Shown here: in pieces, positions 1,825 through 13,678 of the stretch
Layout: every line of letters begins with the position of its first letter
How positions within the stretch are numbered: position 1 is the first letter of the stretch
NCBI GenBank assembly: GCA_003139975.1
Contig: PLHN01000381.1
Span: 1-18,106, forward strand
DNA length: 18,106 nucleotides
Direction of reading: 5' to 3'
Source: Acidobacteriaceae bacterium
Lineage (GTDB): Bacteria > Acidobacteriota > Terriglobia > Terriglobales > Acidobacteriaceae
The notes under the pieces: generated by a model
Databases searched by the model: none
Told to the model about the DNA's origin: nothing
What the model saw: the letters and a program-made list of their open reading frames with translations, nothing else
Position numbers and translations under genes: made by a program

Positions 1825-4800
1825 TTACTCCTCCCCGGCGAAACGGCAGCTTCTCCTGTCGTCGAGCAGCGCGGCGGCGGATTGGGCCGCGGGAACGCTT
1901 GTTGCAGTGTTTGAAGCACCAGGGGCTTTCGTGGGGATCGTGGTAGACGGTGGCACAACGAGCTGGGCCGCCGGCTTTCCGTCTGGCAAAACCGACTGCG
2001 GCCCGGACTGGACCTGAGGAAGCGTTTCCGGCGTGGGTGTTATGGCGCCCGGTTGCGCAACGTCGGGAGAGCCGCTTGCCGCAGAATCAGAGGCAGCTTC
2101 GCAAGGAGCCTCTTGGCTCGAGTCCGAACAGGCAGTCGCCGGCTGGTCAGCCGACGGCATTTCCTGCGGCACGGCGAACAGAATGCTCCCCGTACCCAGC
2201 GGTTGCGCGGAGACCGCCGCCGCATCAAATCGCACCACGCTCCGCGATGGCGGCGTGCCACCGCTTTTCTGGGGCGGCGGCTGCTGCGCGGCCAGCGGAT
2301 CTATGTTCTCCAGCTCAAACTGCGCAGTCGCGCTGCCCGCAGTCACCGCGATGAACGCATCGCACGGACCGAGGCTCCCAACGGTCGGCACGATCGAAGC
2401 GAGTCCATCCTGAACGGTGACTACTTGCGTTTGCGATGTCCCGAGGATGACGGGCATGCCGTCCTGGCCCGCGAAGTCGCTGCCCGGGGATGGCCCTCCG
2501 CCCGGCCCCTGCGGATTTCGTTCGAGCGTGGTCACAAAGGTGACGTTCACTCCCATGACAGGATTGTCGGCCGATGAGCCGTCCGTCGCCCGCATCGCGA
2601 GCGGCTGGAAGGGCTGGCCGTTGGGCACGACCTGAGCCGTTCCGCTAACGGCTTCCAGCTTCCACGAAGAAGCTGGCACGGCGAATAGGGTAAAAGTCTG
2701 ACAGGGGCTATTAGCGGGGGAAACGCAAGCGCTCACTTGCACGGTGGCGCTGAGGTTAGTGACTTGCGCAGTCACGCCGGCCAGCCCCGAGCTGTTGGTG
2801 GTCGCGGTGCTCGAAGAGAGCGAAGCGGCGCCATTGGTGACTGTGAATTTGATAGCCACATTTGCTTGCGGCGCGCCCAAGTCGAGCGCTTCGACGGTGA
2901 GCAGAACGGCGAGGGTTGCCCCCTTCGCGATCCAGAACGTGGGTGCGATGGCGGCCAGGTCGAGACTGGTTTCGGTTCCGACCAGCGTCGTCTGCTGCGT
3001 CTGGGCGGGCGAGTAGGACGTGGGCGCGAGTTCTGCGGTGATGGTGCCGGGGCCTGTGGCCGTTGGAGTTACCCATGTGGACGCTTCTCCCGCCGTATCG
3101 GTCAGAACCGAGCAAGCAGACGCTCCGCCGCAGGCCGAGAATTCGATGCCGTTCGTCGAACTCCACACGACGGTGGCGCCATTGACCGGCGTCACTCCGT
3201 CCACGGCCGTTGCGCGCACGCGGATCAAATTGGGCGCTTGCGCTCCTACGGGTGTCGGGGGCTCGGTGCCTTGCAGCATCTGAAGCAGATCGCTAGCAGC
3301 CGCGCCGTAGGTCAGCGCGCCAATCATTTGCGAAAACGATCCGTTCAACGGATCTGTAACCTGAATCGTGGCGAGACCATCCTGCGGGGCCGATGGCATC
3401 GCCACTTGCATTGCAGTTGCCGATTGGGTCAGCACCACGCCGTTACCGCTGCCGGCGATTACCTGCATGCCCGACTGAAACCCAATTCCTTCAAGCGTAG
3501 TGACTCCGCCGGCGACGCTCAGGCGTGCGGGCGTGACGGTGTCCGAGTAGAGCACGCTCGCCTGATAGAAATAGTCGGGACGCCCGTCGCCGCGATAATC
3601 GGCGATGCCAACCCGATAGCCCTCCGAGGAGTTGAACTGGACGTCGAGGCGGGTCATGCCAAACGTCATCGAGTTGAATGCCGAAGGCGTAGCCGCCGGT
3701 GCCGGATTGCCGCTCTGGTCGCTCAGTTCCCAAACTCCGATGACCGGCAGCAGCTTCGATTCGGTCGGGTTGCCGGATTCGTCGAAGGCCGTCACCGTGA
3801 CGGAGGCCGTGCGATTGGCCTGGGCGGTGAACTCGAAGAAATCGGCCGAGCCATAGCCGGAGATCCACGAACCCCAGCCACCGCCTTGCGGCAAGGGCGC
3901 GGGATCTTGATATGTCGAGCCGCTGCCGGGATGGGTTTGGGCAATCTCGCTGCCGAGCATCAGAATGTCGCGCTCAGAATTGGTGCCGCTGGCGACCGTA
4001 ACAACCACTGACGCGAACGATCCCGATGGCTCGACCTGCAAGGGCGCATACGGCCCCACGCCGGTCGACCAGTTTGGATCGAGCGCTTCCACACTCAGCT
4101 GATACTCGACGTAGGTCTGGCCGGCGGGAATCGTTAACTGGCCCAGGTTATAGATTCCTTCGACCCGGGTGTCGTTTGAGCCAAAGCGATCAAAGCGAAG
4201 ACCACTCGCGTCCATATATCCAGTGATGATGTTGCCGGCGTTGCCGACGAACGCATACCCGGAGACCGAAGTCACTACATATTGGCGCGAGGGTTGCCCG
4301 TTGACCATCATGCGCGCCACGACGTTGACGCCCTGCATCATTTGCGTGGCGTTGCCGGAGGCGTCGGTAAAGTACACGCCGCCCCAAAGTCCGCCGGTCG
4401 GCTGCGGATTGGCGCCGGACGCGGGATACAGCGTCGCCAGCGCCGTAACATCGTCAAGCTTAGGCACGGCCGCATTGGGATAGCACTGGCTGATGGGCAC
4501 GCAACTGATCGGGTCGGCAAAGTGCATGACCGGGAAACCCTGAAAATCGTCCCCGGTTGGAGTCGGGTCGTGCGTCAGGACGTTGATGTTTGCTTGCGAC
4601 CACCCCAGGCCGAAAATGCGCGCCAGCACGCGTGCTAGGCGGTATTGCACGTCAGGCAGCTGGGCGCTGGTGGAAGCACAGACTCCGTTGATCACGGCAA
4701 GGGCATGGACGATGTTGCCGCTCACGGCAAAATTGTCGGGTCCGCCATAGACGGCGTTGGTAAAGCAGTCGTCGACATCGCCCGCGCCTTGGCCTAGAAG

Positions 4801-5211
4801 CGCATCGGTGACGGTGCCGTCATAGTCGTAGACAATGCCGAGCGGCGTAGTTGTCGCGGATGGCGTAATGTCGGCGGGCGCTGCGATCACGCCATCGGTC
4901 ACCTGGATGGTGCTGCCGGTCACGTCCTCGGCGAGATGGCCTGCCTGAGTTACGGTGAGGCCGACGCCGGGCGCACTCGTCCACGAAGTAATCGCAGTGC
5001 CAACGAGAGCATCCGCCTGCGCATTGGTGAGGATCGGACTCAGATCGTTCTGATCGGTGTAGTACTGAACCGACGCATTCGCCCATACGATCGGCTGGCC
5101 CGCGACTCCGGGATCGAATCCGGAGCCGGCGATAAAAGCTGGGCCTCCGGCGCGGAGAGCGACGGGAGCGAGAGTAACGATCAGCGCGGTGGTCAAGATG
5201 CGAGTTCTCAT
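1825..5211 (-). CDS. Large exported protein: degenerate matrixin-like domain followed by Ig-like domains
   Basis: The product has 1128 residues. A signal peptide spans 1-21 (likely cut after LRA). Residues about 30-265 follow the layout of matrixin metalloproteases: a helix ending in RVLARIFGLGWS (194-205), Met229 in a possible Met-turn (PVMHF), then KLDDVTALATLYP (251-263), matching the usual LxxDDxxAIxxLY ending. However, the zinc motif HExxHxxGLxHS reads R194-V195...R198...W204, so all three His and the Glu are lost. Downstream are a beta region (270-400), a PPC-like segment (about 445-555), an IPT/TIG-like domain (about 558-635), two or three Big-type Ig domains (about 645-960), and a Pro/Ser/Ala-rich tail. 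Its ATG overlaps the upstream gene's stop as ATGA, implying coupled translation. The role is probably surface binding rather than proteolysis (inference). Confidence 0.88.
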   Translation of the reverse strand: MRTRILTTALIVTLAPVALRAGGPAFIAGSGFDPGVAGQPIVWANASVQYYTDQNDLSPILTNAQADALVGTAITSWTSAPGVGLTVTQAGHLAEDVTGSTIQVTDGVIAAPADITPSATTTPLGIVYDYDGTVTDALLGQGAGDVDDCFTNAVYGGPDNFAVSGNIVHALAVINGVCASTSAQLPDVQYRLARVLARIFGLGWSQANINVLTHDPTPTGDDFQGFPVMHFADPISCVPISQCYPNAAVPKLDDVTALATLYPASGANPQPTGGLWGGVYFTDASGNATQMMQGVNVVARMMVNGQPSRQYVVTSVSGYAFVGNAGNIITGYMDASGLRFDRFGSNDTRVEGIYNLGQLTIPAGQTYVEYQLSVEALDPNWSTGVGPYAPLQVEPSGSFASVVVTVASGTNSERDILMLGSEIAQTHPGSGSTYQDPAPLPQGGGWGSWISGYGSADFFEFTAQANRTASVTVTAFDESGNPTESKLLPVIGVWELSDQSGNPAPAATPSAFNSMTFGMTRLDVQFNSSEGYRVGIADYRGDGRPDYFYQASVLYSDTVTPARLSVAGGVTTLEGIGFQSGMQVIAGSGNGVVLTQSATAMQVAMPSAPQDGLATIQVTDPLNGSFSQMIGALTYGAAASDLLQMLQGTEPPTPVGAQAPNLIRVRATAVDGVTPVNGATVVWSSTNGIEFSACGGASACSVLTDTAGEASTWVTPTATGPGTITAELAPTSYSPAQTQQTTLVGTETSLDLAAIAPTFWIAKGATLAVLLTVEALDLGAPQANVAIKFTVTNGAASLSSSTATTNSSGLAGVTAQVTNLSATVQVSACVSPANSPCQTFTLFAVPASSWKLEAVSGTAQVVPNGQPFQPLAMRATDGSSADNPVMGVNVTFVTTLERNPQGPGGGPSPGSDFAGQDGMPVILGTSQTQVVTVQDGLASIVPTVGSLGPCDAFIAVTAGSATAQFELENIDPLAAQQPPPQKSGGTPPSRSVVRFDAAAVSAQPLGTGSILFAVPQEMPSADQPATACSDSSQEAPCEAASDSAASGSPDVAQPGAITPTPETLPQVQSGPQSVLPDGKPAAQLVVPPSTTIPTKAPGASNTATSVPAAQSAAALLDDRRSCRFAGEE

Positions 5212-5954: not shown

Positions 5955-5969
5955 TGCCGCGATGCAGCA
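5955..5969. promoter_or_regulatory. Weak second PhaR-like box upstream of phasin 1
   Basis: TGCCGCGATGCAGCA keeps seven of the eight specified bases of CTGC-N3-GCAG, with a degenerate left arm. It lies upstream of the -35 box of phasin 1, with its centre 66 bp from the centre of the perfect operator at 6021-6035. It could be an auxiliary site or chance. Confidence 0.3.
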
Positions 5970-5984
5970 GACCAAGAAATGCGC

Positions 5985-6013
5985 TTGACGGCCTTCCTGC
6001 AAAGCACTATATT
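5985..6013 (+). promoter_or_regulatory. Sigma70-type promoter of phasin 1
   Basis: TTGACG (5985-5990) and TATATT (6008-6013) are separated by exactly 17 bp, close to the housekeeping consensus. Transcription should start near 6020, which falls at the left edge of the PhaR-type palindrome, an ideal place for repression. Confidence 0.75.
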
Positions 6014-6017
6014 CTAG

Positions 6018-6038
6018 CTATGCTGCATTGCAGCATAG
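6018..6038. promoter_or_regulatory. PhaR-type operator of phasin 1
   Basis: This is a perfect inverted repeat with 10-base arms (CTATGCTGCA and TGCAGCATAG) around one central base. It contains CTGC-ATT-GCAG, an exact match to the CTGC-N3/4-GCAG motif reported for PhaR of Paracoccus denitrificans. The core TGCTGCA-N-TGCAGCA recurs at the same place relative to the promoter of phasin 2, and phaR is encoded in this window. The site covers the expected transcription start and ends just before the ribosome binding site. Confidence 0.8.
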
Positions 6039-6048
6039 GAGGCTGTTT

Positions 6049-6798
6049 ATGAGAACCCACACCAAGCCCCACGACGAGCGCTCGCCTCTGTCCCTTCTGA
6101 CCGAGTTGGCCGTCGAGGGAACATCGAGCCTCGTCGAAGCGCAGCGAACTCTTCTTAACCTGGCAAAGCAGGAAAACGACATTGTCCTCAACGGCGTCAA
6201 AGAGCGGATTGGCGGCTTTATGCCGGCAGTCGCGATGACAGATCTTGTGCAACGCAGCCTCGATACGCTCATCGGGATGCAGCAAGAACTGCTGACCACC
6301 ACCAACAAACAGGCGCTCGAGTTGTTGGAGTCAAAGGGCGAAAAGAGTGAGCGCACGGCGCAGTTAGTCGAGTTTGCGCGCGAGGGCGTGGAAACCTTTA
6401 CGCGCGCGCAGAAAAAATTTCTCGACGTGGTGGCGGAGGAAACGGCCAAGGCAACGCGAGGCAAACCGGAACACAACGGCAAATCTGCGAAGAAGACTGA
6501 GCTAACGCAACTGGCGCGCGAAGCCGGGAACGCCTTTGTCGAAGCGCAGAAAAGACTGCTCGACGTCATGGGCCAGCAGATGAACGTCAACCTGGACGTG
6601 GCCAGTCGAACGCTGGACATGATGTCGCCTTCTCGCCTTTTACCGATGGCGAACCTCACCAGCGAAGGCGTGAGGAACTTTGTCGACCGTGAGACAGCTC
6701 TGATCGGGTCCATCGTCAAGCCGGCCAAGAAGGTCGTGGCCCATGCCAAGCACAGCCGGCCGCGTGCGACTCGGCGTCATAAGGCTGTACCGGCGTAG
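6049..6798 (+). CDS. Phasin-like granule protein 1, five-repeat type
   Basis: Phasins coat polyhydroxyalkanoate granules through amphipathic helices. The ATG at 6049 is chosen because AGGAGG stands six bases before it; the frame could open earlier but only inside the operator. The 249-residue product is almost wholly helical and lacks Cys and a signal peptide. It contains five copies of a 25-residue segment of the type E...F..AQ+.LLDV...Q, starting at about residues 19, 65, 108, 154 and 202, so the period is 43-48 residues. Repeat 3 ends AQKKFLDVVAEET, identical to repeat 4 of phasin 2. The tail (about 224-249) is rich in Lys, Arg, His and Ala. The promoter carries a PhaR-type operator. It belongs to a phasin-like family by its AQ+xLLD pattern, length and PhaR context; granule binding itself is inferred. 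Confidence 0.82.
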   Translation: MRTHTKPHDERSPLSLLTELAVEGTSSLVEAQRTLLNLAKQENDIVLNGVKERIGGFMPAVAMTDLVQRSLDTLIGMQQELLTTTNKQALELLESKGEKSERTAQLVEFAREGVETFTRAQKKFLDVVAEETAKATRGKPEHNGKSAKKTELTQLAREAGNAFVEAQKRLLDVMGQQMNVNLDVASRTLDMMSPSRLLPMANLTSEGVRNFVDRETALIGSIVKPAKKVVAHAKHSRPRATRRHKAVPA

Positions 6799-6871
6799 AC
6801 TGCGAAGGTCTTACTTGGTAGCGGGGTTCGGCGCGGGTAACTCTGTTTTTAGTAGAGAGCGCGCCCGACGT

Positions 6872-8539
6872 TCACGCAATAGCAGGCGATGCCTTCGACC
6901 GTTTCAAAAAACGGTTCAGAATCGCCTGCTCCCACTGCACCCATAAACGGCTGGTGTAGAGCAATGCACTGCACTGCAGCGTAAGCCAGTCCCGCGTCCG
7001 GAGCGGCGAACGGAATGCGGCGCGATTGCCGAGCCAGTGCCGCGCGACGCGACGCGCGATCGCGAGGCCCATGCCGGTATCAGGCCCAACGATGTCCGCA
7101 AGAATCCCTTCCAACGTAAACATCACTTTCGACAGCATGATCAGCGAAGCGGGAAACCTGACGCCCTTCATCGCAACCCGCTCCAGCAAGCGCATGGCGT
7201 CGGCGGCGCTGGGCAGATTTGATGGCGGTATCCCGCCCAGAAATTCGGCCACCGTCCGATGAATCATCCGGCCGCGCGGCGAATTCATTCCGATGGGATG
7301 CTGACTGAGCGCAACGATCGCGGCGCTCGTGCCCACGGGATCGCGCAAGCTGACCATCAGAAACAGGAGCGCGAGGTGCCGGCGCTCCTCCCGGCCCAGC
7401 CGTTCCCGCAGCGCCCAGTCGAGGATCGCCAGTTCGCCCGTGCGGTTGTTGTAAAGCAGGTTGCCCGCATGAGGATCACCGTGGAAGACGGCGTCTCGCG
7501 TGGCTGCAAACAGAGGCACGGCGATCAGTGCCTCGATGAGCTGCTCAGCCACTTTTCTGCGGCGCGGGGCCGGCAGGCGGGCGGCTGCGCTGGTCACCTT
7601 GATCCCGCGTTCCTCGGTAAGCGCCGTAACGGCCGGTGCGCACAAAGGCTCGATGAGCCGCGGTATGCGGACACCACGCATCGAGCGATAAAGAGTCCCC
7701 GCCTCGATCAGTGTCTTCTGCTCGCGGCTGAAGTTCACTTCGTGCCGGAGCAGGCGCCGGACCTTCCGGAAGGTGTCCGGGATAAGGTGAGCGGGAAATC
7801 CGTACCGGTGGTGCCGGTCTCCGAAGTGCTGGGCCAGGCCCTGGAGATAGTCCATGTCTTCGGCGAAGTATTGGGAGATGTGCGGTTTCAGCACCTTGAA
7901 GACGCCGCGCTGGCGCCGCCGGGTTTCCGGATTTCGCCAACTGAAGCGCACGACCGCGCTGACGCTGGCCTCCGAAAGTATGGCCGGTGCGATCTTGACG
8001 GCGTAGGTCTCGATCTTCTGGCCCAGCTCCCGCTGAATAATCGCGCGAATGTCTTCGGGCCTGACGTCGCGAATTCCGTTTTCCAGCCGGGCGAGCGCCT
8101 TGCGCAGAGCGGGGTGCAGATGCTGGTTGCGCGCGATAACCTGGCCGAGCTTCTGCAGCCCTGGGACCTTTGCGATCAGGCGCAGCAACCGCACCTCGGC
8201 TGGCGTGCCGGCGGGAAGTTCAATCTGCTCCAGGAGCTTTGGGGCGAGGCGCGCAGGGGAAAGTCGAGCGACCACGAACATCATGGCGTCGCGCACCGGC
8301 GGACGCCAATTGGCATAAGCTTCGGGAACTAGCCGTTCCACCGGGACGATTTCATCCACGATCCATCGCGCCATGGCGTCGCGCAGGGATTCGCCCGCCG
8401 GGCTTTGCAGCCCAGTCTCGATGGCTGCCACTTTCTCGGCGGCCGTGGCGCCTTGGGGAAGGAAATTCTCAAGCATGGCACGCAATTGCTCGGGGGCGAG
8501 CTGGCCAAAGCCCGCGGCGATGGCAGACGCATCCAGCAT
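6872..8539 (-). CDS. Divergent ABC1/UbiB-type protein kinase-like protein
   Basis: The 555-residue product has the order of ABC1/AarF/UbiB kinase-like proteins, which support ubiquinone or prenyl-lipid metabolism. The family KxGQ motif is KLGQ (130-133). The Ala-rich loop that replaces the kinase G-loop corresponds to EASVSAVV (190-197). The lysine strand is GVFKVLKP (Lys215). The catalytic loop is HGDPHAGN (353-360), and the metal-binding Asp is Asp374 in ILDWA. The last motif is DFG in usual members, so DWA is a deviation, and the loop lacks the family Gln. About 110 extra N-terminal residues of helical character precede the core. It converges with phasin 1 (73 bases between stops) and is divergent from the CrtC-like gene. 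It may act in lipid or isoprenoid handling with that neighbour, but this is inference. The ribosome binding site is weak. Confidence 0.82.
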   Translation of the reverse strand: MLDASAIAAGFGQLAPEQLRAMLENFLPQGATAAEKVAAIETGLQSPAGESLRDAMARWIVDEIVPVERLVPEAYANWRPPVRDAMMFVVARLSPARLAPKLLEQIELPAGTPAEVRLLRLIAKVPGLQKLGQVIARNQHLHPALRKALARLENGIRDVRPEDIRAIIQRELGQKIETYAVKIAPAILSEASVSAVVRFSWRNPETRRRQRGVFKVLKPHISQYFAEDMDYLQGLAQHFGDRHHRYGFPAHLIPDTFRKVRRLLRHEVNFSREQKTLIEAGTLYRSMRGVRIPRLIEPLCAPAVTALTEERGIKVTSAAARLPAPRRRKVAEQLIEALIAVPLFAATRDAVFHGDPHAGNLLYNNRTGELAILDWALRERLGREERRHLALLFLMVSLRDPVGTSAAIVALSQHPIGMNSPRGRMIHRTVAEFLGGIPPSNLPSAADAMRLLERVAMKGVRFPASLIMLSKVMFTLEGILADIVGPDTGMGLAIARRVARHWLGNRAAFRSPLRTRDWLTLQCSALLYTSRLWVQWEQAILNRFLKRSKASPAIA

Positions 8540-8559
8540 AAAGGTGAGTCTCAGCTTTC

Positions 8560-8588
8560 ACTATAATCCCGGGCATCCCGGATGTGCA
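8560..8588 (-). promoter_or_regulatory. Possible promoter of the ABC1/UbiB-like gene
   Basis: On the minus strand TATAGT (8565-8560) lies 17 bp from TGCACA (8588-8583), four of six bases to the -35 consensus. Transcription would start about 14 bases before the ATG at 8539. The -10 overlaps the plus-strand TATAAT listed separately, so the two divergent genes may compete for polymerase. Confidence 0.4.
8562..8581 (+). promoter_or_regulatory. Possible -10 box and adjoining palindrome of the CrtC-like gene
   Basis: A perfect TATAAT (8562-8567) is followed at once by the inverted repeat CCGGG-CAT-CCCGG (8569-8581). No good -35 is seen at 16-18 bp. The palindrome sits where an operator would block the start of transcription, but no regulator is implicated. 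Confidence 0.35.
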
Positions 8589-8634
8589 GTAACCGGCATC
8601 ACCGTATGATCAGAAGCTTTGTGAGACAGTTCTT

Positions 8635-9600
8635 TTGTTGTGCGGAGTTCGAAAATCCTTGGCCACTCTAAATGAAGTGTTTTCGTCCTTGTCGGTCCGG
8701 CGCCGCTATGAAGTCTGGTTTCTTCGCATGGGCCTGGCAGACGGCAGTGGGGCGTGGTGGTTTCGCTATCTGGTGATGAATCCGGGTCGCGACGGCTGCG
8801 CCGGAAACCCGCAGGGAATGCCCGTTCAGGTGTGGGCGACATGGTTCCCGGCGGGCGGAAGGCCGCACAGTTTCATTCAGGGATTTCCGCTGCCGGGATT
8901 GGATATCAGTAGCCGAGGGCAGGCTCCGTTTCACTTTCGAATTGGCAGTAATCAGATCGAAGAAGACTCCTGCCGGGGGGCTTTGGACGTCGATGGCCAC
9001 ATAGTCTCGTGGAATCTCCGCTACCGTTCCGCGTTTCACGTGACGCTGAGCAACAAGGGTTGGATCGGCTTTTCGCGCACGCCGCATTCCGACGCGGTTT
9101 TCTCCGGCGAGATCATGCTCGACGGCCGCACCTTTGCTGGAGACGCTCTCGGGTTCGGCGTGCAGGGACACAACTGCGGATTCCGGCATCGCAATTTCTG
9201 GACCTGGACGCACGCATATTTTCCTCGCGCCGGCCGACCTACAACCACGCTCGAAGCTTTGGTCTACGAGATGCCATTCGGCTTGGTGTTTCGCAAAGCC
9301 GTTCTCTGGCACGATGGGCTCCAGCATATCTTCCGCGATCTGCGGGAAACCGGCGACATCCGCAAAACCATGCATTGGACTTTTTGTTGTGCCGGACGAG
9401 AGGAATTCCAGATCGAGGCTGTGATCGACGGAAGTGGTCCAAGCCTGCATCGCCTTCCTTATCTGAAGACCGATTGTTCGGGCAGCTTCGAAGTGGTGAA
9501 CAACAGCCTGGCATCGGCAACGCTGGCTATAAAGAGTCCCGGTGCCGCGGCCGAGCGCTTGGAGACGGCCAACGGCGCGGTCCTCGAGAGGGTGGGCTAG
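8635..9600 (+). CDS. CrtC/AttH-like (hydroxyneurosporene synthase or tocopherol-cyclase type) protein
   Basis: The frame gives about 321 residues with no signal peptide. The start RRYEVWFLRMGLADGSGAWW resembles the YEWWYFxxxxxDG signature that opens the AttH/CrtC and tocopherol-cyclase lipocalin-like domains. The later pattern DGRTFAGDALGFGVQGHNCG...FWTWTHAYF fits the second half of that fold, where Gly-x-x-His and Trp-rich strands recur. Members act on carotenoids, prenylquinols or other lipids, so a hydrophobic substrate is likely, but its identity is unknown. The start is uncertain: the coordinate given is a TTG, no in-frame ATG occurs before the conserved part, and a GTG lies at 8677. The gene ends two bases from the stop of the convergent hydrolase gene. 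Confidence 0.65.
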   Translation: MLCGVRKSLATLNEVFSSLSVRRRYEVWFLRMGLADGSGAWWFRYLVMNPGRDGCAGNPQGMPVQVWATWFPAGGRPHSFIQGFPLPGLDISSRGQAPFHFRIGSNQIEEDSCRGALDVDGHIVSWNLRYRSAFHVTLSNKGWIGFSRTPHSDAVFSGEIMLDGRTFAGDALGFGVQGHNCGFRHRNFWTWTHAYFPRAGRPTTTLEALVYEMPFGLVFRKAVLWHDGLQHIFRDLRETGDIRKTMHWTFCCAGREEFQIEAVIDGSGPSLHRLPYLKTDCSGSFEVVNNSLASATLAIKSPGAAAERLETANGAVLERVG

Positions 9601-9602
9601 AG

Positions 9603-10415
9603 CTACAGGCGCGAGTGCGCGCGGGCCAAGCGCTCGGCGACAACGGAGTATACGGTCGGGTTGAATGCCATTCCGATGTGCGTGCTGGGGACTTCCACAT
9701 CCACTTCAGGATTGTTGGTCAAACAATGGCGCCAATCCACGACGCCGTCGTGCCGCGTGTAGATCGCGGTCTCAACCATCGAGCGGGGAACCTTGCGCCG
9801 CAGCGAATTCAGAAAATTACAAGTGCAGCGTCCGGTATAGCAATCCGGCAGGACGCCGCGGCCATGCTCCTCGAGAATCCGAATGCGAACGGCTTCCACA
9901 GCGTGGGAAACAGCGCGATTCGCGACCGTGCCGCGAATCGGCGAAGCCAGGGTAATCACGGATGCGACGTGGTTCGGCCGCTGGCCCGCCACCGATCGGG
10001 CGATCACTCCTCCCAGGCTATGGCCGATCAAATGAATCTTGCGGCCCGTCTCAGCCAGCGCTTTGTCAATGGTATGGTTCAGGCAGCGCTGGATGAGCAG
10101 ATTCGGGCATTCCGCATTTAAGCCGATCCCGGAAAAATACGCTTGGTATCCGATGCGGCGCAGCCAGGCGTGAAGCTCCGTAAGGTAGAGATCGGTGCCG
10201 AGAAAACCGGGAATGATAACGACCCCAGAGCCGTCGCCGCGCGGCACACCGAAACCGTAATAGACAGGCGCCGCGTGCAGAATAAGGATCTCAGCTCCCA
10301 ACAGAACCTCGGTCCACAGGGAGGTGTTGGTTTCCGGCTCAAAACGCGGAGCAGCCGGCTTGCGCCTGCTGGAGGTTGGTGGACGTCTTGTCGCTCTCTT
10401 CTGTTTGCGCTGCAA
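9603..10415 (-). CDS. Alpha/beta-hydrolase, lipase/esterase type with CxxxxCxC motif
   Basis: The 270-residue product has the lipase elbow GHSLGG (131-136, nucleophile Ser133), an oxyanion strand VIIPGFLGTD (66-75), an acid candidate Asp223 or Asp227 in TRHDGVVDW, and His246 in STHIGMAFNP. Three cysteines (192, 197, 199) form a tight cluster typical of a bacterial lipase group with the same VVDW and THIG motifs. The nucleophile is Ser, not the Cys of PHA synthases, so this is not PhaC. Acyl-ester hydrolysis is expected. The N-terminal 30 residues are basic and Pro-rich, without a signal peptide, which suggests a cytoplasmic or granule-associated enzyme. The start is a TTG with weak GGGA spacing and is uncertain. 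It lies 187 bases after phaR on the same strand, but with its own candidate promoter. Confidence 0.8.
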   Translation of the reverse strand: MQRKQKRATRRPPTSSRRKPAAPRFEPETNTSLWTEVLLGAEILILHAAPVYYGFGVPRGDGSGVVIIPGFLGTDLYLTELHAWLRRIGYQAYFSGIGLNAECPNLLIQRCLNHTIDKALAETGRKIHLIGHSLGGVIARSVAGQRPNHVASVITLASPIRGTVANRAVSHAVEAVRIRILEEHGRGVLPDCYTGRCTCNFLNSLRRKVPRSMVETAIYTRHDGVVDWRHCLTNNPEVDVEVPSTHIGMAFNPTVYSVVAERLARAHSRL

Positions 10416-10476
10416 GTTTGTCCCGCGTTGTCGAATTCCGCGTCGGGCGCGGAGTGTGCGTTTTCCGTGCTGCGGG

Positions 10477-10504
10477 ATTATACCGCTCTGCTCTTTTTGG
10501 TGAA
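10477..10504 (-). promoter_or_regulatory. Possible promoter of the alpha/beta-hydrolase gene
   Basis: On the minus strand TTCACC (10504-10499) and a perfect TATAAT (10482-10477) are 16 bp apart. This lies about 60 bases before the assigned TTG start and after the phaR stop. It suggests that the hydrolase can be transcribed independently of phaR. Confidence 0.5.
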
Positions 10505-10602
10505 CACTGATTTCCCCACGCTTCGAGTCGGGCGGAATCTATGTATAAAACAGGGCAATTGGCCTTATGTGGGCAACGAGGATTCTGTCATGAGCACGAG
10601 TC

Positions 10603-11136
10603 TCAGCGCTTCTTACGAGACGGGCGTTTGGCTTTGGGGGGCGCTGATTCTTCCAGCCGCGCTTCCAGTTCCGCCACGCGCTTGCGCAGAGCATCGACTT
10701 CGGGTTCTGCGGAAGCCTGCGCAGACGATGGAACCGCCGCGCCCAGGATCCGTTTCATCACGTCCACCGGAGACAGGATCGCCGACTGAACTTCGCTCAA
10801 CCGGTTCTGCACCGCATCTTGTACCTTCTCATAGGTGTCAAACGCAGATTTCAGATACCACATGAGGAATTCCTGCCGCACCTCGTCGGAGGCAATGATC
10901 AGTTGCCGCAGCAGTTCGAGCGGCAGTCCGGTCGGCTTATCCTTTGCATCCTCGGTGATGATCTGCGTAAGGGTGACGCGTGTCAGGTCACGGCCGGTCT
11001 TGGCGTCGACCACACGAACTTCCTGGCCTTCACGAACGAGCGCAGCCAGATCGTCGAGGTTGACGTAGCGGCTGCCGGCTGTGTCGTACAAGCGGCGATT
11101 CCCATATTTTTTGATGACGACTACGGAAGGCTTCAT
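10603..11136 (-). CDS. phaR: PhaR, polyhydroxyalkanoate synthesis repressor
   Basis: The 177-residue product matches the PhaR family along its conserved part. The N-terminal DNA-binding domain begins VVVIKKYGNRRLYDTAGSRYVNLDDLA and ends near 65 (LTQIITED). A second conserved region follows (about 66-105, LRQLIIASDEVRQEFLMWYLKSAFDTYEKVQ). The C-terminus has a heptad-like helix (about 145-163) and a Lys/Arg tail. PhaR binds both DNA and PHA: it represses phasin and often its own gene until polymer granules draw it off. The gene is divergent from phasin 2, whose operator is about 80 bases away, and a TGC-N3-GCA site lies in its own leader. The 5' ribosome site is weak (AGGTCTGG). Confidence in the family is high. 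The ligand in this organism is unproven, since no PHA synthase is in view. Confidence 0.93.
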   Translation of the reverse strand: MKPSVVVIKKYGNRRLYDTAGSRYVNLDDLAALVREGQEVRVVDAKTGRDLTRVTLTQIITEDAKDKPTGLPLELLRQLIIASDEVRQEFLMWYLKSAFDTYEKVQDAVQNRLSEVQSAILSPVDVMKRILGAAVPSSAQASAEPEVDALRKRVAELEARLEESAPPKAKRPSRKKR

Positions 11137-11150
11137 GGTCCAGACCTATG

Positions 11151-11161
11151 TTGCCATGCAC
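11151..11161. promoter_or_regulatory. Possible PhaR autoregulatory site in the phaR leader
   Basis: TTGC-CAT-GCAC keeps six of the eight specified bases of CTGC-N3-GCAG, including the inner TGC-N3-GCA core. It lies 15-25 bases before the phaR start codon, where binding would hinder transcription or early elongation. It is much weaker than the phasin operators. Confidence 0.4.
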
Positions 11162-11178
11162 AAGCGAACCAGAACATC

Positions 11179-11207
11179 TTGACACAAGCCCCTTGACTTT
11201 GTATAGT
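11179..11207 (+). promoter_or_regulatory. Sigma70-type promoter of phasin 2
   Basis: A perfect TTGACA (11179-11184) and TATAGT (11202-11207) are 17 bp apart. A second TTGACT at 11193 is too close to serve with this -10. The expected start near 11214 touches the left arm of the operator. Confidence 0.78.
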
Positions 11208-11215
11208 TTAGCTAA

Positions 11216-11230
11216 TGCTGCAATGCAGCA
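11216..11230. promoter_or_regulatory. PhaR-type operator of phasin 2
   Basis: TGCTGCAATGCAGCA is a perfect 15-base inverted repeat containing CTGC-AAT-GCAG, an exact match to the published PhaR motif. Spacing from the -10 box (8 bp) is almost the same as at phasin 1 (7 bp to the same core). It could also affect the divergent phaR promoter. Confidence 0.8.
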
Positions 11231-11245
11231 ATTGGAGGTATTGAT

Positions 11246-12172
11246 ATGGCAGCGGCAACCAAACAAGAATCCACTCACCCGAACCAGCCTTCGTTGATTT
11301 CCGTTCTCTCAGGTTGGGCGCAGCAGGGCGCGCAGACCTTCTTTGCCACGCAGCGGATCCTCCTCGATCTCGCCATGCGGCAGAATGCCAACGTCATGCA
11401 CGTTCTGCGCGAGCAACTATCGGATCCTCATCGTTCTCCTACTACGATTCTCAGCGAAATGGCCGGCGAGGGCATGGAGAACTTTCTCGAAGGGCAAAGA
11501 GTGCTGCTCGATCTCGGCAAGCAGCAGAACGAAATTCTGACGACCAGCGTCAAGGAACGGATCGGCGAGTGCCCGCGGAGGCATGCCGCCATCGACCTGC
11601 TGCGGCGCAGTGTGGACACATTCATCGACATGCAGCAGGAGTTCCTGAAGATCGCCGGCAAACAGAAACACCTCTGGATGGAAGCGGCCAAGTCTCGCAA
11701 GGCCTACCAGCCTGAGCATGCGGTGGACCTGGCCCGCGAAGGCATGGAGAACTTTGTCAAAGCACAGAAGAAGTTCCTCGATGTCGTCGCCGAAGAGACT
11801 TCCAACGCCATGAGCGGCAAACCGGCAAACGGCGCCAGGAAGGGGAAGAAGACTGAACTGTCCGAGGTTGCGCGCAAGGCCACAGAGTCCTTCATCGATG
11901 CGCAAAAGAAACTTGTGGATGTAGCTGGGCAGCAGATGAACGCCTATGTGAAAACCGCGGGCCAGACTGTGGACCTGATGCAGCCGTTGCCCTTCGTCCC
12001 CCTGGGCGAACTGGCACGCGAGACGGTGAAGAGCTACGTGGATGCGCAAAGGTCGTTGATGGAAGCGGTCATGAGGCAGGGAAATGGGCACGCGCACGCG
12101 GCCAAGACAGAGCACCGTGCCAAGCGTCCCGCTCGTGCAACCAGGAAAGCGCCTGTAACGGCGACTGCTTGA
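11246..12172 (+). CDS. Phasin-like granule protein 2, six-repeat type
   Basis: The ATG at 11246 follows GGAGG at seven to eight bases. The 308-residue product is helical throughout and paralogous to phasin 1. It carries six copies of the 25-residue AQ+xLLD segment, beginning near residues 23, 71, 117, 161, 207 and 255 (period 44-48). Copies 2-6 align in order with copies 1-5 of phasin 1, including the linker VKERIG, so this protein has one extra N-terminal copy. The last 25 residues are rich in Ala, Lys, Arg and His, recalling in miniature the DNA-binding tails of PhaF-type phasins. It is transcribed divergently from phaR under a strong promoter with a PhaR-type operator. A granule coat is the likely role; a bridge between granule and nucleoid is a more speculative reading of the basic tail. 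Confidence 0.85.
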   Translation: MAAATKQESTHPNQPSLISVLSGWAQQGAQTFFATQRILLDLAMRQNANVMHVLREQLSDPHRSPTTILSEMAGEGMENFLEGQRVLLDLGKQQNEILTTSVKERIGECPRRHAAIDLLRRSVDTFIDMQQEFLKIAGKQKHLWMEAAKSRKAYQPEHAVDLAREGMENFVKAQKKFLDVVAEETSNAMSGKPANGARKGKKTELSEVARKATESFIDAQKKLVDVAGQQMNAYVKTAGQTVDLMQPLPFVPLGELARETVKSYVDAQRSLMEAVMRQGNGHAHAAKTEHRAKRPARATRKAPVTATA

Positions 12173-12409: not shown

Positions 12410-13678
12410 TCACAAGAATCTGTCGGAGTTGCGGGGCCCATTTGCACCTAAATCCGGAGGCAGCCTCATGCCTTTGGCTCCATTTGCGGTAACGGGTTCG
12501 ACTTTCTTGTTCTCTGCCTTGTCCCATTGTAGAAAATCTTCGATTTCATCGATTCGTTCTTCGGCATCGTGATAGCCAATCTCAACCAGTTCACGCGTGT
12601 ACTTTGAGGTAAAGAGCAGGTAACTCATCAGGTCCGAACAGGAATCCGAGTCCCGTCCCAAGGCACTAACAAAGTACCGGATCATCGAAGGCATATCTTT
12701 CTGATGTTCCCCAGCTAGATCGGATAAATTGACCGAAGGCGTGATGACCAGCGTCTTCAATGGCCGAATCTTCTCGCCTTCTTCCACGTCGGGCTGAACG
12801 ATGTGACCACTCTCAAGCAGGTGGTTCAATCGTTCCAAGTGCTCGATATCGGTCGCGAGATGGTCGAGGAACATCACGTTAAACAGAACTCCCATCACCT
12901 GCGCGAGCGAAGGCCTGGTTTCATCGGCACTGACTTCCACCTGCTCTTTATTTCCGCACCGAACGCCGATCGCGAAAACCCTCTCCGCACCCAGCCGAAT
13001 GACCGGGCTGAGAGGCTGCTGCAGGCGAGCGCAGCCATCGCCAAAAAAAGCCGACCCGCGCGGAATCTCGAGTTGCACGGGTTCGAAAATCATTGGGATC
13101 GCGGCCGACGCACAAATGTGGTCAACGGTAATTTTTGTCGACACCGTCACCAACCGCACCCGCTGCCACGTCTGATGGCCCTTTGCTCCCTGGATGAAGA
13201 GATAACTCTTTCCGGAGTTGAAATTCGTCGCCGAGATGGCCAGGGCGTTAAGGTGGCCGCGCTTGATGTTTGTCTGGATGCGATCGCAATCGAGATGCCG
13301 GCCGAGAAAGTGCCGCAGCGGGGTCGCATCCAACAAAGACCGGGCGTGGCCTCCCCCGGTGATCCCGCCGAAAGAGAGATCCATTATCCAGGTGAGTGAG
13401 TTTTGGGCTTGGGTTACAAAATCGCAACGGAAAATATCGGAGGGCTTGAGCCCCGCCCACATCTCGGCGAGAACACGGGTTGCGGAGGCAAAATCATCGC
13501 AACCGGCGGCGAGCGCACTGCCGTTCACGGCACCGGCGGAGGAGCCTCCTATTAAAAGGAAGGGATTGCCGTGGGAGTCGATCCGTTTTAGTTCACCCAC
13601 GCGCTTCAGAACACCGGCTTGATAGGCGCCTCTGGCGCCTCCGCCCGTCATCACTAGACCGATCACGTTTTTGTCCAT
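12410..13678 (-). CDS. Patatin-like phospholipase
   Basis: The 422-residue product has the patatin Ser-Asp dyad. The oxyanion loop is GGGARGAY (12-19), the nucleophile elbow GGSSAG has Ser47 in GxSxG, and the second catalytic residue is Asp214 in FFGDGC, the family DGG/A motif. The region between includes ASAAIPMIFEPV (190-201), also usual in patatins. There is no signal peptide or membrane segment, so lipid acyl hydrolysis probably takes place in the cytoplasm or on a membrane or granule surface. The C-terminal part (about 240-390) is helical and acidic and not recognised; the last 30 residues look disordered. It converges with phasin 2 with 237 bases between stops, where no clear terminator is seen. 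The ATG has only a weak upstream purine stretch. Confidence 0.88.
   Translation of the reverse strand: MDKNVIGLVMTGGGARGAYQAGVLKRVGELKRIDSHGNPFLLIGGSSAGAVNGSALAAGCDDFASATRVLAEMWAGLKPSDIFRCDFVTQAQNSLTWIMDLSFGGITGGGHARSLLDATPLRHFLGRHLDCDRIQTNIKRGHLNALAISATNFNSGKSYLFIQGAKGHQTWQRVRLVTVSTKITVDHICASAAIPMIFEPVQLEIPRGSAFFGDGCARLQQPLSPVIRLGAERVFAIGVRCGNKEQVEVSADETRPSLAQVMGVLFNVMFLDHLATDIEHLERLNHLLESGHIVQPDVEEGEKIRPLKTLVITPSVNLSDLAGEHQKDMPSMIRYFVSALGRDSDSCSDLMSYLLFTSKYTRELVEIGYHDAEERIDEIEDFLQWDKAENKKVEPVTANGAKGMRLPPDLGANGPRNSDRFL

What the first reader, a model, noticed from the sequence alone, without database searches (positions are those of the whole stretch)
5955..12172. A compact PhaR regulon: two phasin promoters with the same operator at the same position
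Seen: TGCTGCA-N-TGCAGCA occurs as a perfect palindrome 7-8 bp past the -10 box of two separate phasin genes, each with a 17-bp spaced near-consensus promoter, and phaR lies beside one of them. Known: PhaR of Paracoccus binds CTGC-N3/4-GCAG and is released by PHA. Inferred: the same logic works here, in a probable acidobacterium, where PHA control is little studied to my knowledge.
Basis: partly seen in the sequence, partly recalled or inferred. Interest (0 to 1): 0.7.

Follow-up and report, generated by a model that had tools for sequence, protein, structure and literature searches.

The report
PhaR switch for bacterial fat droplets
A DNA switch known for controlling bacterial bioplastic granules is present here and conserved in related soil acidobacteria, but it travels with the enzyme that makes wax and oil rather than bioplastic, suggesting it was reused to control the coat protein of fat droplets.

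Summary
TGCTGCA-N-TGCAGCA occurs exactly at 6021-6035 and 11216-11230, 7 and 8 bp after the -10 boxes of two phasin-like genes, and phaR lies beside the second. These are the only exact sites in the 72.7%-complete genome. The operator (at most 1 mismatch) lies at 88 of 89 related phasin-like genes in named acidobacterial loci. A PhaR operator is well supported, though not shown biochemically.

The "PHA" part is not supported. PhaR genes in the window's family form two types. Type B (12 genomes of 200) always neighbours a class III PHA synthase. Type A, the window's type (35 of 200), does not; 32 of the 35 have no PHA synthase (two show weak partial hits only), and the other 3 also carry type B. 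Instead 32 of the 35 carry wax-ester synthase/DGAT (WS/DGAT), against 2 of the other 165, on the same contig within 15 kb in 27 of 32. In seven related loci the phasin-like and WS/DGAT genes adjoin, codirectional, behind the operator.

Best explanation: a PhaR-phasin switch reused for triacylglycerol/wax-ester droplets. Caveat: the window's own incomplete genome shows no WS/DGAT. Nothing has been tested at the bench.

The parts
5985..6013 (+). sigma-70-type promoter of the short phasin-like gene (TTGACG-17-TATATT)
6021..6035 (.). operator 1, TGCTGCATTGCAGCA, exact palindrome, 7 bp after the -10 box
6049..6798 (+). short phasin-like protein (249 aa); start ATG 6049 after AGGAGG. No Pfam match at E 0.001
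6872..8539 (-). ABC1/UbiB-type atypical kinase; in the fetched stretch of 15 of 39 type-A phaR loci
8635..9600 (+). [not shown]
9603..10415 (-). alpha/beta-hydrolase lipase (serine GHSLG box), present in the fetched stretch of 36 of 39 type-A phaR loci and of none of the 12 type-B loci
10603..11136 (-). phaR, type A (PF07879 DNA-binding domain), divergent from the long phasin-like gene; perhaps self-regulated through the shared 109-bp gap (inferred)
11179..11207 (+). promoter of the long phasin-like gene (TTGACA-17-TATAGT)
11216..11230 (.). operator 2, TGCTGCAATGCAGCA, exact palindrome, 8 bp after the -10 box
11246..12172 (+). long phasin-like protein (308 aa), six amphipathic helical repeats of about 40 aa (low-confidence model)
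12410..13678 (-). patatin-like phospholipase, neighbour in a minority of type-A loci

Best explanation
This is a PhaR-type storage-granule switch reused for neutral-lipid droplets (triacylglycerol and/or wax ester made by WS/DGAT). PhaR binds TGCTGCANTGCAGCA, which covers the expected start of transcription. This blocks the two phasin-like genes and perhaps phaR itself, through the shared phaR-phasin gap. When droplets form, their surface adsorbs PhaR through its diverged part behind the DNA-binding domain. The promoters then open, and the amphipathic-helix phasin-like proteins coat the droplets. Shown by sequence: the operator, its fixed position at the promoter, the genes, their conservation, and the co-occurrence and linkage with WS/DGAT and not with PHA synthase. 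Inferred: PhaR binding, repression, droplet adsorption and coating.
For: Operator: at most 1 mismatch at 88 of 89 phasin-like ORFs in 76 named loci (78 exact) and at 52 of 53 in the family loci with the window (40 exact). 94 of 103 sites have a -10 box ending 7-10 bp before the operator with a 16-18 bp spacer, against 6.7% after shuffling the upstream DNA. PhaR: 35 of the 46 motif genomes carry phaR (Fisher p 4e-21). Store: WS/DGAT in 32 of 35 type-A phaR genomes and 2 of the other 165 (p 3e-31), on the same contig within 15 kb in 27 of 32, overlapping or abutting phaR in 5 (L169, L179, L182, L192, L193). Class III PhaC in 12 of 12 type-B genomes and 0 of the other 188. Outside the family, of 10 phaR genomes 5 have WS/DGAT on the same contig within 10 kb, 3 have PhaC and 2 neither; none has both. 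WS/DGAT in 43 of 46 genomes holding the phasin-like gene. Phasin-like gene followed by WS/DGAT, codirectional and within 400 bp, in 7 of 76 named loci, each with the exact operator (domain check on 4 of the 7).
Against: The window's own genome has no WS/DGAT hit (its row). It is 72.69% complete, and 2 of the other 34 type-A genomes also lack one. WS/DGAT occurs without phaR in G004 and G042 of the family and in G302 outside it (G314 has only a hit under the cut-off). Three of 46 genomes with the phasin-like gene have no WS/DGAT, and two phaR genomes outside the family have neither store (G346, G364). WS/DGAT has no operator directly upstream in the family loci. Three genomes carry both types and both stores. 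Two type-A genomes have weak partial hits to the PhaC model (G049 26.7 bits, G015 19.9, against 323-353 for the type-B ones), read as other hydrolases. Support for type A as one group in the PhaR tree is weak (78/34; one side of a branch in 80% of bootstraps). Binding to lipid droplets is wholly inferred. Related genomes share ancestry, so the p-values overstate independence.
Confidence: 0.74

Rival explanations
1. One reading: an ordinary PhaR regulon for PHA granules, with PHA made by an unrecognised or unassembled synthase.
For: PhaR family and operator are those of PHA systems; the window's genome is incomplete; a PhaR locus with class III PhaC and the same operator exists in related genomes.
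Against: 32 of 35 type-A genomes have no PhaC by PF07167 or TIGR01836 beyond two weak partial hits, 18 of these 32 at least 98% complete, while the same searches find PhaC beside every type-B phaR. The locus lipases have a serine (GHSLG) box in 38 of 38 ORFs, not the cysteine box of PhaC. WS/DGAT tracks type A. FISH-Raman found no PHA in Solibacteraceae and other Acidobacteriota cells of activated sludge (passages, PMC8100337; other families than the window's).
Confidence: 0.13
2. The palindrome is the site of another repressor, and phaR is a bystander.
For: 16 of 65 exact sites lie in family genomes without a phaR hit; no binding data.
Against: None of those 16 lies at a phasin-like gene or the ~400-aa hydrolase, and 13 of 16 are overlapped by a reading frame of 150 aa or more. 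The motif matches the published CTGCNNNGCAG of PhaR. Both phaR types, with different neighbours, carry the same site at the promoter.
Confidence: 0.06
3. Mixed role: type-A PhaR and phasin serve membrane or isoprenoid-quinone lipid bodies (ABC1 kinase, AttH/CrtC-fold protein, lipases), and WS/DGAT is only one client.
For: ABC1 kinase, AttH/CrtC-fold protein, lipase and sometimes patatin recur in type-A loci; WS/DGAT is outside the operator-driven unit in the family loci.
Against: WS/DGAT is in 32 of 35 type-A genomes and 43 of 46 phasin genomes and adjoins the phasin-like gene in 7 named loci. ABC1 and the AttH-like gene are in the fetched stretch of only 15 and 13 of 39 type-A phaR loci; the stretches are short, so this undercounts.
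Confidence: 0.2

Closest known systems
PhaR-phasin (PhaP) regulon of PHA granules (Cupriavidus, Paracoccus, Rhodobacter, Sinorhizobium)
   Same: PF07879 DNA-binding domain; CTGCNNNGCAG-type operator; phasin as target; granule-titrated repressor logic (PMC12542648, introduction read and passages)
   Different: No PHA synthase beside the window's type; WS/DGAT in its relatives instead; no recognisable PHB_acc domain (PF05233); the phasin-like targets reach no curated phasin cut-off
MLDS/MLDSR of Rhodococcus jostii lipid droplets
   Same: Major droplet protein and its own regulator, beside each other; regulator recruited to droplets, so droplets can raise coat-protein expression (PMC5504291, passages)
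   Different: MLDSR is described there with an XRE-type HTH and a different box, and both represses and activates; the words PhaR and phasin do not occur in that text. The window's regulator is of the PhaR family and lies in a different phylum
Type-B locus of the same bacterial family: phaR, short phasin, class III PhaC (L122, L134 and others)
   Same: Same operator at the phasin promoter, phaR divergent from phasin, homologous DNA-binding domain
   Different: Separate PhaR clade (100/97), short phasin, PhaC with a GWCIGA cysteine box, none of the locus lipase, ABC1 or AttH-like neighbours in the fetched stretches
Plant plastoglobules (recalled, no call)
   Same: Lipid bodies whose proteins include ABC1 kinases, esterases and a cyclase acting on isoprenoids
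   Different: Analogy only; no homology of the coat proteins tested

Membership tests
PhaR (polyhydroxyalkanoate synthesis repressor) | PHB_acc_N DNA-binding domain (PF07879) | tested here: met
   97.2 bits against cut-off 25
PhaR (polyhydroxyalkanoate synthesis repressor) | NCBIfam equivalog TIGR01848 above its cut-off | tested here: not met
   101.5 bits against 109.45: just short
PhaR (polyhydroxyalkanoate synthesis repressor) | PHB_acc regulatory domain (PF05233) | tested here: not met
   No match in the window protein at E up to 10; 2 of 22 relatives match, best E 0.083
PhaR (polyhydroxyalkanoate synthesis repressor) | CTGCN3GCAG operator at the phasin promoter | tested here: met
   published site from PMC12542648
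PhaR (polyhydroxyalkanoate synthesis repressor) | Binds DNA and is released by PHA | not testable with these tools
   needs protein
PHA regulon | PHA synthase in the genome | tested here: not met
   PF07167 and TIGR01836: none in the own genome (73% complete) and, two weak partial hits aside, none in 32 of 35 type-A genomes
Phasin families | Match to a curated phasin model above cut-off | tested here: not met
   PF09712 21.6 bits against 25.7 for the long protein; TIGR01841 11.3 against 30.2 for the short one
WS/DGAT neutral-lipid storage locus | WS/DGAT gene in the same genome | tested here: inconclusive
   Absent from the incomplete own genome; in the sample present in 3 of 3 other same-genus genomes with phaR and in 0 of 4 without
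MLDSR-type lipid-droplet regulator | XRE-type helix-turn-helix | tested here: not met
   Only PF07879 passes its cut-off in the window regulator

The most novel reading that the evidence does not exclude
A PhaR-family repressor that senses triacylglycerol/wax-ester droplets by adsorbing to their surface, in place of PHA. It runs a neutral-lipid droplet kit: multi-repeat coat protein, WS/DGAT, lipases, ABC1 kinase and an AttH/CrtC-fold enzyme. A second clade of the same repressor still goes with PHA synthase in the same bacterial family with the same operator, so one operator would serve two chemically different stores, including in 3 genomes that hold both.
Probability: 0.5. Interest if true: 0.85.

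Novelty: new variant of a known kind. Interest (0 to 1): 0.7.

Why it matters
PhaR is known as the PHA sensor. Here a kind of PhaR follows the enzyme of fat and wax storage, so what PhaR really senses (a polymer, or any hydrophobic granule surface) becomes testable by comparing two kinds with one operator. It gives candidates for droplet coat proteins and their regulator in Acidobacteriota, where neutral-lipid accumulation is called unexplored (passage, PMC10351704). It also warns that phaR or phasin-like genes in soil genomes should not be read as PHA production.

Tried and rejected
PHA synthase as partner: rejected for the window's type. The site at 5955-5969 as a second operator: not conserved. 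A recurrent motif-like stretch inside the ABC1 gene near its 3' end in six named loci (2 mismatches in five, 1 in L212): read as coding sequence, not an operator. The two 1-mismatch sites elsewhere in the own genome (L150, L151): no link to storage genes seen. Long-phasin structure: mean pLDDT 48.9, so no fold search was made. Operator directly upstream of WS/DGAT: not found in the family loci.

Counting notes. The 'PHC' column is invalid: that model was empty, so the column repeats the patatin table. PhaC was read again. In one search, 115 distinct phasin upstream stretches were kept (stretches cut by a contig edge left out); 104 had at most 1 mismatch within 250 bp of the ORF start and 103 of those had the full 120 bp. 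Of the 11 others, L149 and L258 are true misses and 9 have over-long ORF starts. Family loci (L075-L151) and named loci (L199-L274) overlap in part (for example, L200 and L075 lie on contigs of the same length) and are not independent. The WS/DGAT search covered 47 of the 76 named loci (46 genomes), chosen mostly as not obviously in the family sample; at least three of its genomes repeat earlier samples (same hit coordinates as G077, G237, G289), and one hit (G419) is a fragment of 46 bits. No PhaC hit reaches the TIGR01836 cut-off (323-353 bits against 365.3); the cysteine box and full-length match carry the call. One genome with PhaC (G096) has further PhaC-like pieces on another contig. The types of the 10 phaR genes outside the family were not assigned. 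One alpha-proteobacterial PhaR of four fetched (L277) gave no usable protein, so the tree has three.

Papers and novelty searches. Opened: PMC12542648 (passages and introduction); PMC5504291, PMC6686919, PMC10351704, PMC2667194, PMC8100337, PMC10888616 (passages only). All else is listing only. Searches: PhaR with 'wax ester synthase' (2 papers; PMC6355812 listing only), 'phasin' with 'wax ester synthase' (7), Acidobacteriota with 'wax ester' (6). PMC10351704 mentions one putative phasin on a Pseudomonadota scaffold with a WS/DGAT homolog. No listed title or opened passage links PhaR to WS/DGAT; whole texts of most listed papers were not read.

Full report
WHAT IS THERE. The window carries two exact copies of TGCTGCANTGCAGCA, at 6021-6035 and 11216-11230. 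Each sits just past a sigma-70-type promoter with a 17-bp spacer: TTGACG/TATATT and TTGACA/TATAGT. The -10 boxes end 7 and 8 bp before the palindromes. Behind them are two related phasin-like genes, 6049-6798 and 11246-12172. phaR (10603-11136, minus strand, PF07879) is divergent from the second. In the whole held genome these are the only exact sites and the only phaR.

IS IT MORE THAN CHANCE? In 200 genomes of the same family the exact pattern is found 65 times, and its reversed control twice. Forty of the 65 lie at a phasin-like gene, 1 upstream of a phaR at a contig end, 5 at one alpha/beta-hydrolase gene and 19 elsewhere. Of those 19, 16 are in genomes without phaR, 13 of them overlapped by a reading frame of 150 aa or more; the other 3 are L085, L088 and L128. 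Seen from the genes, 52 of 53 phasin-like ORFs in the family loci with the window (40 exact) and 88 of 89 in named loci (78 exact) have the operator with at most 1 mismatch; the misses are L149 (2 mismatches) and L258. In 94 of 103 sites the best promoter ends 7-10 bp before the operator with a spacer of 16-18, against 6.7% when the upstream DNA is shuffled. The operator thus covers the expected start of transcription, a usual place for a repressor. Its core matches the published R. sphaeroides PhaR site CTGCNNNGCAG (PMC12542648).

TWO KINDS OF phaR. The 51 phaR genes in 44 of 200 family genomes fall into two kinds. Type B (12 genes in 12 genomes) has a short phasin. In all 12 a class III PhaC of 345-395 aa with a GWCIGA cysteine box lies 0.4-0.9 kb beyond the phasin, on the same strand. 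These PhaC score 323-353 bits, under the strict TIGR01836 cut-off of 365.3. Type B is one clade (100/97) in a PhaR tree with three alpha-proteobacterial PhaR proteins. Type A (39 genes in 35 genomes, the window among them) has the long, repeated phasin-like gene in most loci and no PhaC beside it. The type-A genes lie together in the tree, but with weak support (78/34). Both types use the same operator: type B has 7 exact sites, 4 with one mismatch and 1 with two. The two types agree best in the DNA-binding domain and differ behind it. Neither shows the PHB_acc domain clearly.

WHICH STORE? PhaC is present in exactly the 12 type-B genomes; PF07167 rings in the same 12, in 9 over its cut-off. 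Twelve more genomes have only weak partial hits to the PhaC model (19-27 bits), among them the type-A genomes G049 and G015. WS/DGAT (PF03007) is present in 34 genomes: 32 of the 35 type-A genomes, and 2 without type A (G004, G042). The three type-A genomes without it are G000 (the window's, 73% complete), G107 (69%) and G187 (90%). Three genomes have both types and both enzymes. Gain and loss go together even inside genera: in the window's genus 3 of 3 other phaR genomes have WS/DGAT and 0 of 4 phaR-free ones do. WS/DGAT is on the same contig as the type-A phaR, 1.0-14.6 kb apart between the matched domains, in 27 of 32, and overlaps or abuts the phaR gene in 5. A class-wide sample of 240 adds 10 phaR genomes outside the family: 5 with WS/DGAT (all on the same contig within 10 kb), 3 with PhaC, 2 with neither, none with both; one genome outside the family has WS/DGAT over the cut-off without phaR (G302) and one a hit under it (G314). 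Of 46 genomes reached through the phasin-like gene, 43 have WS/DGAT, the two with the nearest PhaR relatives (L199, L269) included. In seven named loci, three of them labelled Bryobacterales or Bryobacteraceae and the rest Terriglobia or Acidobacteria, WS/DGAT follows the phasin-like gene on the same strand within 400 bp, so it lies behind the operator itself.

MECHANISM. Most likely PhaR represses the phasin-like genes from the start site, and perhaps itself, until droplets of triacylglycerol or wax ester adsorb it. The coat protein is then made in step with the droplets. This is the known logic of PhaR with PHB (PMC12542648, introduction) and close to that of MLDSR with lipid droplets in Rhodococcus (PMC5504291, passages), here with a PhaR-family protein on the fat side. 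Operator, promoter geometry, conservation and linkage are shown by sequence; binding, release and coating are inferred.

LIMITS. The window's own genome is incomplete and shows no WS/DGAT, so the reading for this organism rests on its relatives. The genomes are related and the p-values ignore that; the within-genus pattern and the families outside f1 soften this. I named types A and B from sequence similarity and phasin length with the PhaC result already in view; the tree came later. 'Phasin' is a label from position and helices, not from a curated model. The literature searches cover open papers only; no listed title or opened passage links PhaR to WS/DGAT.

Noticed in passing
L122, L123, L125, L126, L133, L134, L138, L146-L149, L115: A second phaR clade in the same family lies with a short phasin and class III PHA synthase and carries the same operator (L149 with 2 mismatches): likely true PHA loci.
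   Followed up: yes
L076:4058-5317, L086:320-1576, L118:4052-5248, L120:4008-5237, L084: An extra target: a ~400-aa PGAP1-like alpha/beta hydrolase (GHSMG box in 4 of 5 pieces) with the exact operator upstream, in genomes that also hold phaR.
   Followed up: partly
window 8635-9600: Conserved protein without Pfam match at E 0.001 but with a predicted AttH/CrtC-like two-barrel fold, beside an ABC1 kinase; recalls the protein set of plastoglobules (recalled).
   Followed up: partly
window 11246-12172: Six-fold repeat of amphipathic helices with moment peak near 98 degrees; 3086 relatives among the candidates scored, and of the best 120 listed none with a Pfam domain and every name given 'hypothetical protein'.
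   Followed up: partly
L139, L141: Extra phaR copies in two genomes (G105, G049) without phasin-like gene or operator in the fetched stretch.
   Followed up: no
L088:4001: Exact operator 112 bp from the start of a 321-aa gene that looks like a universal stress protein (by eye), in a genome with both phaR types.
   Followed up: no
L121:519 and 8947: Two exact motif copies in similar stretches of a genome without phaR, ahead of two similar small genes of unknown kind.
   Followed up: no
window 1825-5211: Large (1128 aa) protein with Big_1 Ig-like repeats; not linked to the finding.
   Followed up: no
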